A stretch of 64,000 bases of DNA from Chryseobacterium gleum (GTDB lineage: Bacteria > Bacteroidota > Bacteroidia > Flavobacteriales > Schleiferiaceae): contig CAMCXO010000012.1 in assembly GCA_945883565.1 (NCBI GenBank), forward strand, positions 1-64,000, read 5' to 3'. A model generated the notes under the pieces. That model had not been told where the DNA came from. It did not search any database and worked only from the letters and a program-made list of their open reading frames with translations. This document shows, one piece after another, positions 650-22,801 of the stretch. The translations under genes and the position numbers were made by a program. How positions within the stretch are numbered: position 1 is the stretch's first letter; every line of letters begins with the position of its first letter.

Positions 650-1300
650 CATTCGAAGGCTGTAGATAATTTGAAAACGCTGGTAAAAAAATTGAAGATG
701 CCTGTAAATGAATGCTCGAATCCGGATAATGGGTGTTTGTTGCCGGTGCGGGAGGGTTAGAAGTCTGTCGAAATTTTGAAAACGCTGGTAAAAAAATTGA
801 AGATGCCTGTAAATGAATGCTCGAAGCCAAATAATGGGTGTTCGATGCCGACGCGGGAATGTTTGAAGTCTGTCGAAATTTTGAAAACGTTGGTAAAAAA
901 ATTGGAGAAGCCGACAGTTGAACGTTCGAAGCGAGCGGAGGAAAGCTTCAAGTCGTCAGATGAATGTTCTAAGTCTTTGGTAAAATTGAAAACGTCGGCA
1001 GAAGAATTGGAGAAGCCTATTAATGAAAGCTTGAAGCCGACTAATGACTGTTCGACTCTGGCGCGGGAATGTTTGAAGTCTGCGGTAGAATTGAAAGCGT
1101 TGGTAAAAAAATTGGAGAAGCCGACGGTTGAACGTTCGAAGCGAGCGGAGGAAAGCTTCAAGTCGTCAGATGAATGCTCGAAGTCTGCGGTAGAATTGAA
1201 AACGTCGGCAGAAGAATTGGAGAAGTCGATAGTTGTTGGCCCGAAGCGGTCGGTTTATCGATCGAAGTGGGTAGTGGAAGGCTTGGAAGTTATAATCAAG
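650..1300. repeat. 21-bp tandem array with 105-bp super-period
   Basis: About 31 imperfect units of 21 bp run without phase loss from 650 to 1300. The unit TTGAAAACG.. recurs at 671, 776, 881, 986, 1091 and 1196, exactly 105 bp (five units) apart. Blocks at 890-975 and 1100-1185 are almost identical (210 bp apart). Because 21 is divisible by three, both strands hold long open frames that translate as heptapeptide repeats, but a TAG at 758-760 breaks the plus frame and no signal for expression is visible. The array ends within a few bases of the minus-strand gene stop at 1296. Confidence 0.85.
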
Positions 1301-3113
1301 GTGTTTTATTGTCGCCACGGAGACGTCTATAATGGTTTCTGGCTTCCTCTAAATAGAAGCTATCGCCATGTTTTTCCAAAATGGTGGCATAATGTTGTTG
1401 GGCCTTGTCTATTCTGCCAAATTGTTCTTCTTCTAATTTGGCAAGTAACATTAAAGCATTATCCGCTAAAATGCCCTCTCCAAAATTTTCAATTAAGTTT
1501 TCTAAACTCATTAGAGCATTTTGGAAGTCTGATAAATCGACAAAAATTTTGGCTTTCATCCAAAGCAGCTCATCTTGAATGCTATGCTCATAAAAGGCAA
1601 TTTCCATTTGATTTAAAACCACAAGTGCTTCCGAATACTTTTTGCGCGTTTGAAGCATTTCTGCTTTGGCGTAAAGCAGAAGTGCTTCCGTATTGGTATC
1701 GAGACCAATATTGTCGCGAATAAGCACAGAATATTCCATAGCGTTGTTCGCAATGGGTTTTGAAGTACTTTGTTTTAAGGCGTCGAATAAATTTCGGGCC
1801 CATTGAAAATCGCCTTGATAAAAAGCCACTTGTGCCCTTTTAAATTTTGCCAAATCGGCTAATTCGGTCCCGGTTCGTTCTTTTTCAACTTGGGCATAAG
1901 CTAAAATTGCCGCATAGAACCTACCAATAAATGTTAAAACATCGGCATATGCCAAACGGCTCAAATCTATTTCTTCGCGCCTTGGATCTACAATGTTCAA
2001 CAATGAATCTAAAATATGGAGAGCGCCAATGGTATCATTTAGGTGAAAGGCTTTTAACAAAGCCCAATGTCTGAAACTGGATGAAGTGGTGGTATTGAAT
2101 GGTAAATCTTTAAGTGTAGTATGATACGCGTTTGAAAGGGCCGTGGCTTGGTTTAAGGTAATGGGTAAACTTTCGTAAGCTTGTAGCCTTTGGGCATCTA
2201 ACAAAGCCAAGCGTGCAGGTAGAAAAAACTGAAGATTTTTATTCTTTTCTTGGCTTAAGTAATTAAAGCACTCTGCAGCTGTTTCGTAATCGCCATTTCT
2301 TAAACACACATAGCCAAAATCAAAAATAGCATTCGCATACTGGGCTGTTTGTTTGTCGAGAGAAACTAACTGTTGAAAAGCGCCACTGAATTGACGTTCT
2401 TCAACAAAAACCCAAATAAGCAATTCGACTACTTGTGGAGTGCTTTTTTGCTGAATGTGTTTAACCAATTTTTCTTTCAACAACTGATTGGTTGGATTGT
2501 CGGCTTCGAGACTAATAGACTGGGATAAATAGGCCTTAATATTTTGCAAATAGCTTGGGGAGGTAGCAACCAATTCAATAAATGCGTCAAAAACGTCAGA
2601 TAAACGCCCCAACTCCCCATAAATCTGTGCTTTTTGCCAATAAAAGTTGAGTTGAGGTGATTTTTGTTCCGCCCTTTCGTAGGCTGTTAGTGCCTGTTCA
2701 AATAATCGTGCCTCTTCAAACAACCTGGCACTTTGATAAACATAAGTAGGTTGAATGTCAATTCTTTGAAATAAAAAGTTGAAAGCTTCGTTAGCGCCTT
2801 TGACATCGCCAAGTTTTAATCTTAAACGGCCTAATTCAACGTAATAGAAGTCGCTTTGATTTCCTGCGGTTTTGATTTGATCTTCTGCTAAACGCTCGGC
2901 TCTTTTAAGTTGGCCTTGAATTTCATAAATACTACAGATCTTTTGGTAAATACCTTTCGATTTGTTTGTTTTAAAAATTTCGCGGTATTCGGATAAGGCT
3001 TTGTCCCACTCGGACTGTTCAAAATACGCCTCTGCCAAAGCCAAATTACCGGTTTGACCATGTGCATTTGAAGCGATTAATGCGCAAACAATGAAATATT
3101 TAAACCATTTCAA
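1296..3113 (-). CDS. TPR-repeat exported protein
   Basis: A 605-residue protein with an N-terminal signal peptide (KWFKYFIVCALIASNAHG, then Q) followed by many tetratricopeptide-like helical repeats, for example LAEAYFEQSEWDKALSEYREI near the N-terminus. It is probably periplasmic and acts as a protein-interaction scaffold; the partner is unknown. I chose a TTG start at 3113-3111 because it places the signal peptide at the N-terminus and overlaps the TGA of the upstream lipoprotein gene as TTGA. The ATG at 3170 would put 19 extra polar residues in front of the signal. The stop lies at the edge of the 21-bp repeat array. Confidence 0.75.
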   Translation of the reverse strand: MKWFKYFIVCALIASNAHGQTGNLALAEAYFEQSEWDKALSEYREIFKTNKSKGIYQKICSIYEIQGQLKRAERLAEDQIKTAGNQSDFYYVELGRLRLKLGDVKGANEAFNFLFQRIDIQPTYVYQSARLFEEARLFEQALTAYERAEQKSPQLNFYWQKAQIYGELGRLSDVFDAFIELVATSPSYLQNIKAYLSQSISLEADNPTNQLLKEKLVKHIQQKSTPQVVELLIWVFVEERQFSGAFQQLVSLDKQTAQYANAIFDFGYVCLRNGDYETAAECFNYLSQEKNKNLQFFLPARLALLDAQRLQAYESLPITLNQATALSNAYHTTLKDLPFNTTTSSSFRHWALLKAFHLNDTIGALHILDSLLNIVDPRREEIDLSRLAYADVLTFIGRFYAAILAYAQVEKERTGTELADLAKFKRAQVAFYQGDFQWARNLFDALKQSTSKPIANNAMEYSVLIRDNIGLDTNTEALLLYAKAEMLQTRKKYSEALVVLNQMEIAFYEHSIQDELLWMKAKIFVDLSDFQNALMSLENLIENFGEGILADNALMLLAKLEEEQFGRIDKAQQHYATILEKHGDSFYLEEARNHYRRLRGDNKTP

Positions 3114-3655
3114 AATTCTTTCGAATAATGTGCCCGTGTGCTGTCGAGTTGTGGCTTTAAATCTTTCCATATAGCGGTGGCTAAACGCACATCTTCAATT
3201 TTGGCAAACAATTGTCCGCTTAAAAGAGAAACCTCATTTTCTTCATCAACCAAATAAGTGAAAAAGGCATTGCTGTCGAGCTCTTTTTTCACATAAGCTT
3301 CTTGCAAATTGTTTAGTTGTGAGCGGCTAAAATCTATGCTTTCTCTAAATTTTGATAATTCAGGCCTGCTTTTATCTATTCGGCGTTTTACGTATTGCAA
3401 ATCGCTTAATTGTTTTATCCAAAAAGATCGGTTATTTGTGTCTTTATAATTGGTTTGAAACCAGGAATAATGGTCTGTTACCTCAGGTTCTAAATTTAGA
3501 ATTTGTTCGAAACTACCTGATTTAAGTGCGGAATCGGCTTTTTCGAGCTGAGCCAATAAGGGGCTTATGTGGCTTTGGGCCGTTTGTTCGTGCTTATTTT
3601 GATTACAAGCTAATAGGCTTGAAAGCAACAGAACAATAAAAAACAGATGTTTCAT
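3110..3655 (-). CDS. hypothetical lipoprotein
   Basis: A 181-residue protein of unknown function. Residues 1-17 form a lipoprotein signal peptide with a lipobox ending LLAC (Cys17), so it is probably anchored in the inner or outer membrane facing the periplasm. The rest is charged and mainly helical by appearance (residues 90-130 look coiled-coil prone). Its ATG overlaps the serS stop as ATGA and its own TGA overlaps the TTG start of the TPR protein, so the three genes are probably translated from one mRNA. No known domain was recognised. Confidence 0.75.
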   Translation of the reverse strand: MKHLFFIVLLLSSLLACNQNKHEQTAQSHISPLLAQLEKADSALKSGSFEQILNLEPEVTDHYSWFQTNYKDTNNRSFWIKQLSDLQYVKRRIDKSRPELSKFRESIDFSRSQLNNLQEAYVKKELDSNAFFTYLVDEENEVSLLSGQLFAKIEDVRLATAIWKDLKPQLDSTRAHYSKEF

Positions 3656-17623: not shown

Positions 17624-17661
17624 TTTTGGCTGCGTACTTTCGCGCCAAGTTAAACAGCATT

Positions 17662-19425
17662 ATGGCTTACCGTACACACAACTGTGGTGAATTAACAATT
17701 GAGCATCTTGGTCAGAAAGTGGTTTTGGCTGGTTGGGTTCAAAGAGTTAGAGAATTAGGTGGGATGACTTTCTTAGATTTAAGAGACAGATATGGAATAA
17801 CCCAATTGGCCTTTAATGATGGTTGGGATGAGTTGCTTATGGCAAATGCGCGTAAGTTTGGTAGAGAAGATGTTATACAGGCTAAAGGCGTTGTAATTGA
17901 AAGAAGCAATAAAAACGCATTGCTTTCAACAGGTGAAATTGAAATCCAAGTACAGGAGCTTCATTTGCTCAATAAAGCGAAACTACCCCCATTTACTATT
18001 GAAGATGAAACTGATGGTGGCGATGAACTTCGTATGCAGTATCGCTATTTAGATATTAGAAGAAAGCCTGTTCGTGATAATTTATTGCTGCGCCATAAAG
18101 TAGGAATGGAAGTTAGATATTGGCTTAGCAACCATGGTTTTGTAGATGTAGAAACCCCATTTCTAATAAAATCAACACCCGAAGGCGCGCGCGATTTTGT
18201 GGTACCCTCTCGAATGAATCCTGGTGAGTTTTATGCTCTTCCTCAATCGCCTCAAACCTTTAAACAATTATTAATGGTGGCTGGGATGGATCGCTATTAC
18301 CAAATTGTTCGTTGTTTTAGGGATGAAGACTTGCGAGCTGATCGACAACCCGAATTTACACAAATTGATTGTGAGATGGCTTTTGTAGAACAGGAGGATA
18401 TATTAGAAACATTTGAGGGTCTATTTAAGCACATATTGAAGCAAATTAAAGGGCAAGAGTTCGGGAATTTCCCGCGAATGACCTATGAAGAAGCCATGAC
18501 ATTATATGGAAATGATAAACCAGATATTCGCTTTGGGATGACTTTTGTCGAATTAAGTGCCTTGGTTCGGAATAGAGGGTTTAAGGTTTTTGATGAGGCG
18601 GAATTAATAATTGGAATTAATGTAGAAGGTAAGGCTGATTTTTCGCGTAAAGAGTTAGATGCTCTTACCGATTTTATAAAGCGCCCTCAACTTGGAATGA
18701 GTGGTTTGATATGGGTGAAATATCAGTTAGATGGTGTTATTTCGTCTTCAGTAAACAAATTTTTTAACGAAGACTCACTTTTTGAATGGGCTAAAATGTT
18801 CAATGCAAAGCCTGGTGATTTAATGCTGATTTTAGCCGGCACTAAAGCCAAAACGCGCAAGGCTCTTAGTGAACTGCGATTACATCTTGGCAATAGTTTA
18901 GGGCTTCGTAAACCCGATGAATTTGCGCCACTTTGGGTGGTTGATTTCCCTTTGCTTGAGTGGGATGAAGATAGTCAACGTTGGCATGCTATGCATCATC
19001 CTTTTACAGCACCTAAGCCCGAAGATATGCATTGGCTCGAAAACGATCCGGCTAAAGTGAGAGCAAATGCCTACGACATGGTTCTAAATGGCAATGAAAT
19101 TGGAGGAGGTTCAATTAGAATTCACGATAGTTCACTACAAGAAAGAATGTTTAAAATTCTTGGGTTTTCGGCCGAAGAAGCAAAAAAACAGTTTGGATTC
19201 TTGATGACGGCATTCGAATTTGGCGCCCCACCACATGGAGGAATAGCTTTTGGTTTTGACCGTTTGGTTTCTATAATTGGAGGCCAAGAGAGCATACGAG
19301 ATTTTATTGCATTTCCTAAGAATAATTCAGGCCGGGACACTATGATAGATGCCCCGTCTGAATTGGAAGTTGATCAGCTAAAAGAATTGCAATTGAAGTC
19401 AGAATATTTTAACACAAAAAAATGA
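17662..19425 (+). CDS. aspS: aspartyl-tRNA synthetase
   Basis: A 587-residue class II synthetase that charges tRNA-Asp in the cytoplasm. It shows the N-terminal OB anticodon-binding domain (residues about 10-110), the class II core ([27 protein letters not shown] for motif 2) and the bacterial insertion domain, ending with the motif 3 region [16 protein letters not shown] chose ATG 17662 ([11 protein letters not shown]); an in-frame TTG at 17626 would add 12 residues. A near-match -7 box, TACTTTCG, lies at 17634-17641. Confidence 0.96.
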
Positions 19426-19576: not shown

Positions 19577-20992
19577 ATGGCATACTACATCAATTTACTC
19601 ACCCCAGAAACTTACGAAGCAATGTCGAAAACGGCTTTGAAAGTAGCTGGCTTCCGCGAACGCCAAAGGCCTATTGCGGAAGAAATAAATCCTGGTGATG
19701 TGCTTGTGTGTTATGTGCTAAAAACATCAAAGCTTGTAGGCATAATGCGTGTTAATAGTCAGGTATACAAAGATGATAAACCGCTATTTGCCGAGGGAAT
19801 TGATCCATATACTGCCCGCTTAGATGTCGAAACAACCGTTTGGTTAGACTTAAAAGAAGCTGTTGCCGATGATGACGATATGGTTTGGAATCACTTAAGT
19901 TTTACCAAATCGATACCGAAAAGTAGTTTAATTTGGACAGGAATGTTTAGAGGCAGTCTCCGCAAACTTGAAGTGGCTGATGGGAAACACCTCGAATGGG
20001 TATTGCAAGAACGAAAAGCTGGTGTTCCAACTAATTTAATGAAATTAGGTCAAAGCCATTTCAACTCAAAGGAATTGAGCACGACTTCAAGCCATGAATC
20101 TGAATCTTTAATTTCGTCCGCCAATGCTAATGGGACAGATGTGCTAGACTCAGAAAACTCAGATTATGGCCAATCTACCAATCAAGAAACTCAACATCTT
20201 ATAAGCGTTGAGTCAGATTTAGAGTCTAAATATCAACAAACAGCGGATATGAATTATTCTGATACAAAAACCCCTGCATCATCAAACGAAAACCGCCCTT
20301 ACTGGGAAGGAAGAAGTGATTACAAAGAAGAAGGTTTAGGTTTTATTCCTATGTCGAGGCATTCGTCAGGTAAAAAAGAGAATCAAATGCAGTCCGAAAC
20401 CAACTCAACCATGCACATAACGGTACCAGCCAACGATGCCGGAAAAAGCCACATTGAAGAAGACACTAAAAATATTGCGCGAATTCAAGCTTTATTAGCT
20501 AGAATTGGAGAGAGAATGAATTTTAAAATATGGATTCCAATGGAGTATAGAAGTCAAGTGCTTCAATATTGGAACCCAACAGGCAATAGCTTGCTGAATA
20601 ATTTACCTCTTAATCTCGATTATTTAACGTTGCGTACTGTTGAAAACATTGATTTGCTATGGGTTCGTGATCGAAATATTGCACGCGCATTTGAGATTGA
20701 GGATCCTGGTTTTTTTTACAAAGGGGTTATGCGCCTCGCAGATTTGGTTACCCTGCAGTCAGGCATGGTGCTCAATGGATATATAGTTGGACCAGAGAAG
20801 CTCCAGAATGCGGTACTCGGTCAGATTACTCGGCCAATTTTTAGTTTGATGTCGAATAGCTCCCTCGCCAATTCGGTGAGCTTCTTATCCAATGAATCAG
20901 TTGAAGAATTGAGTAAACAAAAGCACCTCGAGTACATGAATGATCTGGTTTTAGATGAATATTCTATTCACGCACCGACGGTTGCACATTAA
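19577..20992 (+). CDS. EVE-domain fusion protein, possible nuclease C-terminus
   Basis: A 471-residue protein in three parts. Residues 1-150 look like an EVE (PUA-like) domain: INLLTPETYEA, GFRERQRPIAEEINPGDVLVCY and VETTVWLDL. EVE domains are thought to recognise modified bases in DNA or RNA. Residues about 155-285 are a Ser/Asn/Glu-rich linker. Residues about 290-471 form a separate domain with IDLLWVRDRNIARAFEIED (358-376) and RLADL (386-390), a pattern I associate with predicted PD-(D/E)XK-like domains, although the usual ExK appears as ExE here. It has its own upstream gap after the aspS terminator. Function is inferred, not shown. Confidence 0.6.
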   Translation: MAYYINLLTPETYEAMSKTALKVAGFRERQRPIAEEINPGDVLVCYVLKTSKLVGIMRVNSQVYKDDKPLFAEGIDPYTARLDVETTVWLDLKEAVADDDDMVWNHLSFTKSIPKSSLIWTGMFRGSLRKLEVADGKHLEWVLQERKAGVPTNLMKLGQSHFNSKELSTTSSHESESLISSANANGTDVLDSENSDYGQSTNQETQHLISVESDLESKYQQTADMNYSDTKTPASSNENRPYWEGRSDYKEEGLGFIPMSRHSSGKKENQMQSETNSTMHITVPANDAGKSHIEEDTKNIARIQALLARIGERMNFKIWIPMEYRSQVLQYWNPTGNSLLNNLPLNLDYLTLRTVENIDLLWVRDRNIARAFEIEDPGFFYKGVMRLADLVTLQSGMVLNGYIVGPEKLQNAVLGQITRPIFSLMSNSSLANSVSFLSNESVEELSKQKHLEYMNDLVLDEYSIHAPTVAH

Positions 20993-21019: not shown

Positions 21020-22801
21020 ATGCTTAGGATTTTTAATAAGTGGTTAGGTAAGTTTTTAATTTGGCGCGTGAGGAATATATCTCAGCGCCAATTTATTTTA
21101 ATGCTATCAGTTTTGGTAGGGCTAATAAGTGGTACTGTGGCAGTATTACTCAAGAATACTGTTCATTTCGTACAAAGTCTTTTCGATACACCTTGGCTTA
21201 GTGCTTATCATCAAGTTTTCTATTTTATTTTCCCGCTAATAGGCATTTTCCTTACTGTTATAGTTGTGAAATTTGTTATTAAGCGACCGGTTGGCGAAGG
21301 TATTCCCGGGACCCTTTATGCCATTTCCAAGCAAAATGGACTAATACCCGCTTTTAAAATGTATGCGGCTATTTTGACTTCTAGTATCACAGTAGGTTTT
21401 GGGGGTTCAGTTGGATTGGAGGGCCCTACGGTAAGTACAGGTTCTGCCATCGGCTCGAACTTGGCTAGGTTAATGCACCTAAATTATAAATCACGTATTT
21501 TACTAATAAGTTGTGCCGTTTCCGGTGCTGTTAGCAGCATAATGCAAACACCAATTGCCGCTGTTGTGTTTGCAATTGAGATTTTAAGCCTCGATTTAAC
21601 CTTAAGTTCATTAGTACCCTTGTTACTTAGTTCAGCAAGCGGTGCAGTTATGAGTATATTTTTTCTTGGTGAAGGCCATTTATTTCCGGTTCAATTGAAA
21701 GAAGGATTTTCGGTTTCTCACTTGCCGTTTTATGCCTTGTTAGCTGCTTTGGCAGCAGGTTTCTCCATTTATTTCAATAAGGTTTATTTCGGCATATTGG
21801 CTGGATTGCATCAAATTCGAAACGAGTATTTACGCTTATTGGGCGGGGGACTGATTTTAGGTAGCCTTATTTTTTTAGTTCCGCCATTATATGGAGAGGG
21901 TTACGAAATAATAAACCACCTGCTTAATGGGAAAGCAGAAGAGGTAATTAGCGAAAGTCCATTCAAACAAATGGTTTCTCATGAACTGCTTATTTTACTT
22001 TTGGTTTTAGGCCTCGTATTGTTTAAAGTTTTTGCAACGTCTTTAACCATACATTCTGGAGGAGTAGGGGGTATTTTTGCCCCTGCTTTGTTTATGGGAA
22101 GTGCTCTGGGTTATACTCTTGCTAGATTCGTCAACTATTTTAAAATTGATGTATTACCAGAAACCCATTTTGCTTTGGTTGGGATGGCGGCACTACTGGC
22201 TGGGGTATTGCATGCTCCTTTAACTGCGGTTTTTTTAATTGCCGAAATTAGCGGAGGTTATGCTTTGTTCTTACCACTTATGCTGGTAAGTGCTTTATCA
22301 TTTGCCCTTGTTAAGGCTTTTGTACCACATTCGGTTTATGCGGTGCAGTTGGCTCGCAAGGGTGAACTTATTACGCACGATAAAGACCAAGCTGTTCTTA
22401 CACTTATGAAACTAGAAAGTGTTATAGAACATAATTTTGCTGAAGTTAGGCCTGATCAAAATTTAGGCGAATTGGTGGATGTTGTCGCCAAAAGCAGCCG
22501 CAACATTTTCCCGGTTTTAGACGAGGACCAAATGCTTGTTGGTATTTTGACCTTAGATGATTTTCGGCACATTATGTTTCAACAGAATTTGTATGAAAAC
22601 ACCTTTGTCCGCGATTTGATGTCAAGCGCGCCAGCAATAATTGACACCGAAGAAAGAATGGAATTGGTTATTAAAAAGTTTCAAGATACAGGTGCTTGGA
22701 ACCTGCCCGTGGTTAAAAACAACAAGTATGAGGGCTTTGTAAGTAAAAGTAAACTTTTTAATGTTTATAGACGTAAATTGATTGAATTTACAGGCGAGTA
22801 A
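21020..22801 (+). CDS. ClC-family chloride channel/transporter with CBS pair
   Basis: A 593-residue inner-membrane protein with the ClC fold (residues about 20-440) and two C-terminal CBS domains (about 455-590), which usually bind adenine nucleotides. ClC motifs seen: GEGIP in place of the common GSGIP, the gating glutamate in GSVGLEGPTV, and GGIFAP. The proton glutamate position after FAIE is Ile (FAIEIL), so it may be a channel rather than a proton-coupled exchanger. I chose ATG 21020 (MLRIFNKW). Confidence 0.9.
   Translation: MLRIFNKWLGKFLIWRVRNISQRQFILMLSVLVGLISGTVAVLLKNTVHFVQSLFDTPWLSAYHQVFYFIFPLIGIFLTVIVVKFVIKRPVGEGIPGTLYAISKQNGLIPAFKMYAAILTSSITVGFGGSVGLEGPTVSTGSAIGSNLARLMHLNYKSRILLISCAVSGAVSSIMQTPIAAVVFAIEILSLDLTLSSLVPLLLSSASGAVMSIFFLGEGHLFPVQLKEGFSVSHLPFYALLAALAAGFSIYFNKVYFGILAGLHQIRNEYLRLLGGGLILGSLIFLVPPLYGEGYEIINHLLNGKAEEVISESPFKQMVSHELLILLLVLGLVLFKVFATSLTIHSGGVGGIFAPALFMGSALGYTLARFVNYFKIDVLPETHFALVGMAALLAGVLHAPLTAVFLIAEISGGYALFLPLMLVSALSFALVKAFVPHSVYAVQLARKGELITHDKDQAVLTLMKLESVIEHNFAEVRPDQNLGELVDVVAKSSRNIFPVLDEDQMLVGILTLDDFRHIMFQQNLYENTFVRDLMSSAPAIIDTEERMELVIKKFQDTGAWNLPVVKNNKYEGFVSKSKLFNVYRRKLIEFTGE

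What the first reader, a model, noticed from the sequence alone, without database searches (positions are those of the whole stretch)
19577..20992. EVE domain fused to an uncharacterised, possibly nuclease-like domain
EVE domains bind modified bases and are often fused to nucleases in restriction of modified phage DNA. Here the C-terminal 180 residues hold D359, E373-x-E375 and RLADL, which could be a diverged PD-(D/E)XK core. A stand-alone gene with its own flanking terminator and promoter could be a one-gene defence factor or an RNA-modification reader. This is the best candidate in the window for something new.
Basis: inference. Interest (0 to 1): 0.58.

Follow-up and report, generated by a model that had tools for sequence, protein, structure and literature searches.

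The report
EVE domain fused to restriction-nuclease domain
This gene encodes a two-part protein, a domain that probably reads a modified DNA base joined to a DNA-cutting domain of restriction enzymes, and is most likely a one-gene defence against viruses with altered DNA, a design already predicted by others.

Summary
The 471-aa ORF is real and has two conserved domains joined by a long variable linker. Residues 1-150 fold as an EVE/PUA domain (VIA Z 16.8 to PH1033). Residues about 297-471 contain D359, E373-x-E375 and the alpha-beta-beta-beta-alpha-beta order of a PD-(D/E)XK core. That domain is homologous, through relatives, to a PADLOC Type II restriction-enzyme model. In 52 aligned domains D359 and E375 are invariant. 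Eleven complete EVE fusions of the same layout occur in five phyla. Two of these sit beside restriction-modification genes. In the window the gene lies between aspS and clc. It is missing from that exact site in two congeners and two family members, so it is not strictly vertical. EVE-PD(D/E)XK enzymes were already predicted as modification-dependent (type IV) restriction enzymes (Bell et al. 2020), so this is a new member of a known kind. Two caveats: the window's lineage alone has lost the [S/T]-T-x3-S/N motif next to the catalytic acids, and a congener's copy has an in-frame stop, so activity here is uncertain. The claimed private promoter and terminator were not found.

The parts
19577..20992 (+). 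471-aa EVE + PD-(D/E)XK-like protein
   Evidence: ORF; homologues over the full length in 11 loci outside the genus
19577..20026 (+). EVE/PUA-like domain, residues 1-150
20027..20461 (+). disordered Ser/Glu/Thr/Asn-rich linker, residues 151-295; pLDDT under 50 for 157-291
   Evidence: linker 25.6% identical to the congener against 64-72% for the domains
20465..20989 (+). PD-(D/E)XK-like restriction-endonuclease domain, residues 297-471
20651..20653 (+). codon of D359 (first acidic residue)
20693..20701 (+). codons of E373-I-E375 (second and third acidic residues)
20702..20722 (+). residues 376-382 (DPGFFYK), which replace the family's H/K-[S/T]-T-x3-S/N
17626..19425 (+). aspS, upstream neighbour; followed directly by clc in several relatives
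21020..22801 (+). ClC-type channel/transporter gene with CBS domains, downstream neighbour (the ORF can also start at TTG 20999)

Best explanation
The protein is a single-polypeptide modification-dependent restriction endonuclease of the EVE-PD(D/E)XK kind. Inferred mechanism: the EVE domain flips out and binds a modified base in incoming DNA; the C-terminal domain, probably as a dimer and with a divalent metal held by D359, E373 and E375, then cuts nearby. Shown: the two domains, their predicted folds, the conserved acids, homology of the C-terminal domain (via relatives) to Type II restriction enzymes, the patchy presence at a fixed site, and purifying selection on both domains. Inferred: DNA as target, which modification, cleavage, and defence.
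For: Domain homology to proteins annotated 'type II restriction endonuclease' and to PADLOC PDLC03534 REase_II via relatives (L015 beside a C5-methyltransferase, E 2.6e-128 over 2-355; L060 4e-12; L063 3e-11; the congener's copy 5e-4). The domain recurs beside or fused to DNA methyltransferases. Conserved acids. AlphaFold2 core H287-313, E317-319, E360-364, E367-374, H382-393, E400-405, domain alone pLDDT 87.8. Structural neighbours are mostly restriction, nicking or repair endonucleases: 15 of the first 20 rows by title. EVE fold. R-M or other defence neighbours in L060, L061, L118, L119. Absent from the same site in G001, G003, G011, G007. pN/pS 0.29 (EVE) and 0.27 (C-term) against 0.22 aspS and 0.26 clc.
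Against: The window protein itself matches no PADLOC model and no Pfam nuclease. Foldseek best E is 0.11 and the best VIA Z 7.9, below the range the tool calls reliable. The window lineage lost the motif after ExE that nearly all 52 homologues keep and has a long stem, 0.66. The congener's copy has a stop. The direct neighbours of the window copy are housekeeping genes. The host and 6 of 13 other carriers have C5-methyltransferase matches, so general m5C cutting is unlikely.
Confidence: 0.6

Rival explanations
1. A former modification-dependent nuclease whose cutting function is lost or much altered in this genus; it survives as a modified-base binder or is on its way to decay.
For: Only the window has P377 and G378 where 51/52 have S/T and 50/52 have T; only the window and its congener have K at 382. 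Long stem branch 0.66. In-frame stop in the congener.
Against: D359, E373, E375, R386, D389 are all kept in both species. The C-terminal domain shows pN/pS 0.27, like housekeeping neighbours. The congener genome is a fragmented assembly, so the stop may be recent or an assembly error.
Confidence: 0.22
2. A Type II-like endonuclease in which the EVE domain serves ordinary sequence recognition or regulation, with protection by a methyltransferase elsewhere in the genome.
For: Nearest curated model is a Type II restriction enzyme. L061 sits in a cluster with a C5-methyltransferase and a Type II enzyme model; the host encodes a C5-methyltransferase on contig C10.
Against: No methyltransferase next to the window copy. 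In L061, and by eye in the host, the methyltransferase already has its own restriction enzyme.
Confidence: 0.1
3. A housekeeping RNA-modification reader linked to translation (next to aspS and near tadA).
For: YTH-type relatives of the EVE fold bind modified RNA (rows); neighbours are housekeeping.
Against: Missing at the same site in G001, G003, G011 and G007; in the order only 2 of 296 genomes searched (the window's and its congener's) have this layout among the 9 with the domain; the C-terminal domain belongs to restriction enzymes.
Confidence: 0.05

Closest known systems
[quoted passage not shown] outline, sections 5, 9, 18 and passages read)
   Same: EVE domain and PD-(D/E)XK-type domain in one polypeptide; fast-evolving, defence-type class
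   Different: The sections read name the class, not this nuclease subfamily; the window copy has a 145-residue linker and a lost active-site-flank motif. Supplementary data were not open to me.
VcaM4I, EVE-HNH endonuclease (PMC7897488; outline with abstract and sections 18, 19, 24 read)
   Same: N-terminal EVE sensor, C-terminal nuclease in one chain
   Different: HNH nuclease; binds 5mC/5hmC; no HNH match here
PADLOC PDLC03534 REase_II (Type II restriction enzyme)
   Same: Homologous nuclease domain in relatives
   Different: The best full-length match, L015, has another N-terminal half and sits beside a C5-methyltransferase; the window protein itself does not score
PH1033 / MJECL36 (UPF0310, stand-alone archaeal EVE proteins)
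   Same: EVE subfamily: profile E 1.9e-8 and 2.2e-6, Z 16.8 and 16.1
   Different: No nuclease domain
COG4127, Mrr-cat predicted restriction endonucleases (PMC1189080, passages read)
   Same: Predicted nuclease at the C-terminus after a different N-terminal domain
   Different: Mrr-type catalytic domain; no Mrr_cat match here

Membership tests
EVE domain (PF01878, PUA superfamily) | Profile match | tested here: met
   Borderline: 22.6 bits against 23, 23.4 over the cut-off; PRK00809 E 2.1e-8
EVE domain (PF01878, PUA superfamily) | EVE/PUA fold | tested here: met
   VIA Z 16.8, rmsd 2.4, 132 aligned, to PH1033
EVE domain (PF01878, PUA superfamily) | Base-binding pocket residues as in VcaM4I (P24, W82, Y130) | not tested
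   No residue-level structural alignment to VcaM4I was available; invariant W104, F109, W120 only noted
PD-(D/E)XK superfamily | alpha-beta-beta-beta-alpha-beta core order | tested here: met
   AlphaFold2 secondary structure
PD-(D/E)XK superfamily | D ... (D/E)-x-K catalytic motif | tested here: inconclusive
   D359 ... E373-x-E375, with E in place of K throughout the family; ExE is a tolerated variant as in BamHI (recalled)
PD-(D/E)XK superfamily | Structural similarity to solved members | tested here: inconclusive
   Foldseek best EcoT38I E 0.11; VIA best N.BspD6I Z 7.9, 150 aligned, rmsd 4.2
PD-(D/E)XK superfamily | Metal-dependent phosphodiester cleavage | not testable with these tools
   needs biochemistry
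EVE-PD(D/E)XK modification-dependent (type IV) restriction enzyme | Both domains in one chain | tested here: met
   the nuclease assignment rests on homology plus a sub-threshold fold match
EVE-PD(D/E)XK modification-dependent (type IV) restriction enzyme | Defence-type context | tested here: inconclusive
   Window copy: aspS and clc. Relatives: R-M beside L060 and L061, defence genes beside L118 and L119
EVE-PD(D/E)XK modification-dependent (type IV) restriction enzyme | Cuts modified, not unmodified DNA | not testable with these tools
   needs biochemistry or plating
Type II restriction-modification enzyme | Cognate methyltransferase partner | tested here: not met
   Neighbours are aspS and clc; the C5-methyltransferase matches are on other contigs
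Type II restriction-modification enzyme (PDLC03534) | Profile match of the nuclease domain | tested here: not met
   Window: none up to E 1 or 10; homologues do match
EVE-HNH endonuclease | HNH nuclease domain | tested here: not met
   No HNH family in the Pfam scan up to E 10
COG4127 / Mrr | Mrr_cat domain | tested here: inconclusive
   No Mrr family in the Pfam scan up to E 10; weak homology would be missed

The most novel reading that the evidence does not exclude
In this genus the nuclease half keeps its three acids but has rebuilt the otherwise near-invariant active-site flank, under purifying selection and behind a new 145-residue linker: a changed enzyme (nickase, other substrate, or a modified-base sensor with regulated cutting) rather than a standard EVE-PD(D/E)XK restriction enzyme.
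Probability: 0.18. Interest if true: 0.5.

Novelty: new member of a known kind. Interest (0 to 1): 0.32.

Why it matters
It ties an unnamed ORF to a mobile, compact nuclease domain that matched no Pfam, NCBIfam or PDB sequence model in the searches run here, and that is attached to at least five different N-terminal partners (EVE, an unidentified domain in L027/L028, a HARE-HTH-like domain, an HhH-like domain, methyltransferases). EVE-PD(D/E)XK restriction enzymes are a predicted class; this clade gives small single-gene candidates to test for cutting phage DNA with modified bases.

Tried and rejected
Viral contigs: no relative. Phages: none. Plasmids: no place covering 80% of the full EVE fusion, only part of it, mostly the nuclease domain. 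PDB sequence searches for the C-terminal domain or its carriers: only chance-level hits (the rows lie on the N-terminal half of a plasmid protein and were dismissed as coiled-coil-like noise). The idea that carriers should lack C5-methyltransferases because the enzyme cuts m5C was tested and not supported: 7 of 14 carrier genomes have a PF00145 match, some only fragments. COG4127/Mrr and EVE-HNH membership were considered and set aside. BspD6I active-site numbering could not be confirmed in the paper opened, so no residue-level match to it is claimed. 'Not in print' is not claimed.

Full report
Observation. ORF 19577-20992 (+) encodes 471 aa. The N-terminal part matches EVE at the border of Pfam's cut-off (22.6 bits against 23; 23.4 and over it in the genome search) and NCBIfam PRK00809 at E 2.1e-8. 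The C-terminal part matches no Pfam, NCBIfam or PADLOC model.

The C-terminal domain is a restriction-enzyme domain. tblastn with residues 297-471 finds 97 plasmid records (E limit 1), many annotated 'type II restriction endonuclease'. A profile finds it in 9 of 296 genomes of the order and 37 of 395 of the phylum, own genome included. Architectures seen: a ~359-aa protein next to a C5-methyltransferase (L047 by Pfam; L048 and L050 alike by eye); fusion to the C-terminus of an N6/N4-type methyltransferase (L016/L049 and L041 by Pfam; L042 by eye); a HARE-HTH-like N-terminus (below Pfam's cut-off) next to a Dam-type methyltransferase (L053; L043 and L044 alike by eye); ~420-aa proteins with an HhH-like N-terminus (label by eye); and EVE fusions. 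PADLOC model PDLC03534 (Type II restriction enzyme) matches L015 over residues 2-355 at 2.6e-128, and the C-terminal domain of L060 at 4e-12, L006 at 5.5e-12, L028 at 1e-11, L063 at 3e-11 and the congener's copy at 5e-4; the window's own domain does not score. The link to restriction enzymes therefore runs through close relatives.

Conservation. Among 53 distinct domains (52 with letters in these columns; L070 is broken off) D359 is 52/52, E375 52/52, E373 50/52 (one D, one K), W362 51/52, R386 46/52 with K in 6. Right after ExE and one more residue the family has [S/T] in 51/52 and T in 50/52, and S or N at position 382 in 49/52. The window alone has P377 and G378, and only it and its congener have K382. 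It is thus the most diverged member of the sample at this place, with the three acids intact.

Structure. In the full-length model most ten-residue blocks of the two domains have mean pLDDT of 71-96; residues 157-291 are under 50. The EVE part aligns to PH1033 with Z 16.8 over 132 residues. The C-terminal domain alone has mean pLDDT 87.8. Foldseek's first four rows are EcoT38I (three) and BsaWI, but the best E is 0.11. The VIA list starts with N.BspD6I (Z 7.9, 150 residues, rmsd 4.2); 15 of its first 20 rows are restriction, nicking or repair endonucleases by title. The tool warns that Z under 8 may be only a common arrangement; I use it as agreement with the sequence evidence, not as proof.

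Relatives of the whole protein. A scan of genome contigs gave 13 loci. Eleven carry a complete EVE fusion (L059-L069; L060 is the same gene as L046), L070 is broken in the C-terminal part and L071 holds only an EVE piece. They lie in Bacteroidota, Bacillota, Nitrospirota, Chloroflexota and Pseudomonadota. Identity to the window is 37-45%. In a tree of 52 nuclease domains the 13 EVE rows fall with L027 and L028 in one group (99/96), the window and its congener together (100/100) on a stem of 0.66. L027 and L028 carry another N-terminal domain, so the N-terminal module has been exchanged, as expected of modular restriction enzymes (inference).

Context. L060: a Type IIG enzyme (PDLC03612, E 1.2e-232) directly upstream, and a DUF433/PIN pair downstream. 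L061: a C5-methyltransferase and a Type II enzyme model upstream. L062: a DUF4062 gene. L118 (=L027): a DruE-like SNF2 helicase next door. L119 (=L028): a Type III restriction subunit nearby. By library search I scanned neighbours of L060, L061, L062, L068, L118 and L119 only; the other loci were read by eye, and parts were cut. Clear R-M neighbours: 2 of 11 complete EVE fusions; 2 of 2 swapped relatives if the DruE-like helicase is counted as defence.

The window's locus. The gene lies between aspS and clc, and the congener G002 has it in the same place. In G001 and G003 (same genus) and G011 and G007 (same family) clc follows aspS directly. G009 has another gene after aspS; G004's contig ends at aspS. 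By AspRS, G002 and G004 are closest (75%) and G001 and G003 further (71%). So the gene was gained at, or lost from, one site within the genus. Between window and G002, pN/pS is 0.29 for EVE, 0.73 for the linker, 0.27 for the C-terminal domain, 0.22 for aspS and 0.26 for clc (synonymous sites near saturation). Both domains have been kept by selection for some time, but G002's copy now has an in-frame TAG at position 319.

Which modification. The host encodes a C5-methyltransferase next to a protein that looks like an HNH restriction enzyme by eye, and 7 of 14 carrier genomes have PF00145 matches, some fragments. Unrestricted m5C cutting is therefore unlikely; hypermodified phage bases or a context-limited target fit better (inference).

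Comparison with the known. Bell et al. 2020 report 'a substantial variety' of EVE-PD(D/E)XK putative type IV enzymes (PMC7641849 section 9). VcaM4I shows how an EVE sensor works with an HNH nuclease (PMC7897488). The window protein is best filed as a member of the EVE-PD(D/E)XK kind by domain layout, with its activity untested. Claims of a private promoter and terminator are not supported.

Noticed in passing
L005, L006, L007, L103-L117: The HhH-like paralogues often sit beside heavy-metal P-type ATPase genes: an ATPase signature lies in the fetched 9-13 kb in 9 of 18 loci, against 0 of 14 EVE-clade and 0 of 18 other loci (motif search, one of the 9 with one motif only; the three plasmid loci were top hits, not a sample). 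Why a nuclease travels with copper or metal resistance is unexplained.
   Followed up: partly
L027/L118, L028/L119: Two Bacteroidota proteins have the EVE-clade nuclease domain but another N-terminal domain without a Pfam match, near a DruE-like helicase and a Type III restriction subunit.
   Followed up: partly
L059:9001-10101: In this otherwise typical EVE fusion the first E of ExE is K; natural variant or sequence error not decided.
   Followed up: no
L058:5976-7382: The congener's copy at the same aspS-clc site has one in-frame TAG, splitting it into 317 and 148 aa ORFs.
   Followed up: partly
window 20027-20461: The 145-residue Ser/Glu/Thr/Asn-rich linker is long only in this genus; the other 11 EVE fusions have about 50 residues there.
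   Followed up: no
L099 (G000:C10:71950-73044): The host's own Type II-like pair: an HTH-C5-methyltransferase (505 aa) followed by a 323-aa protein that looks like an HNH restriction enzyme by eye.
   Followed up: no
window 655-1235: Tandem array of a 105-base unit (period 210 also), about 4.5 copies, at the 3' side of the minus-strand ORF 1296-3170 and open in long frames on both strands.
   Followed up: no
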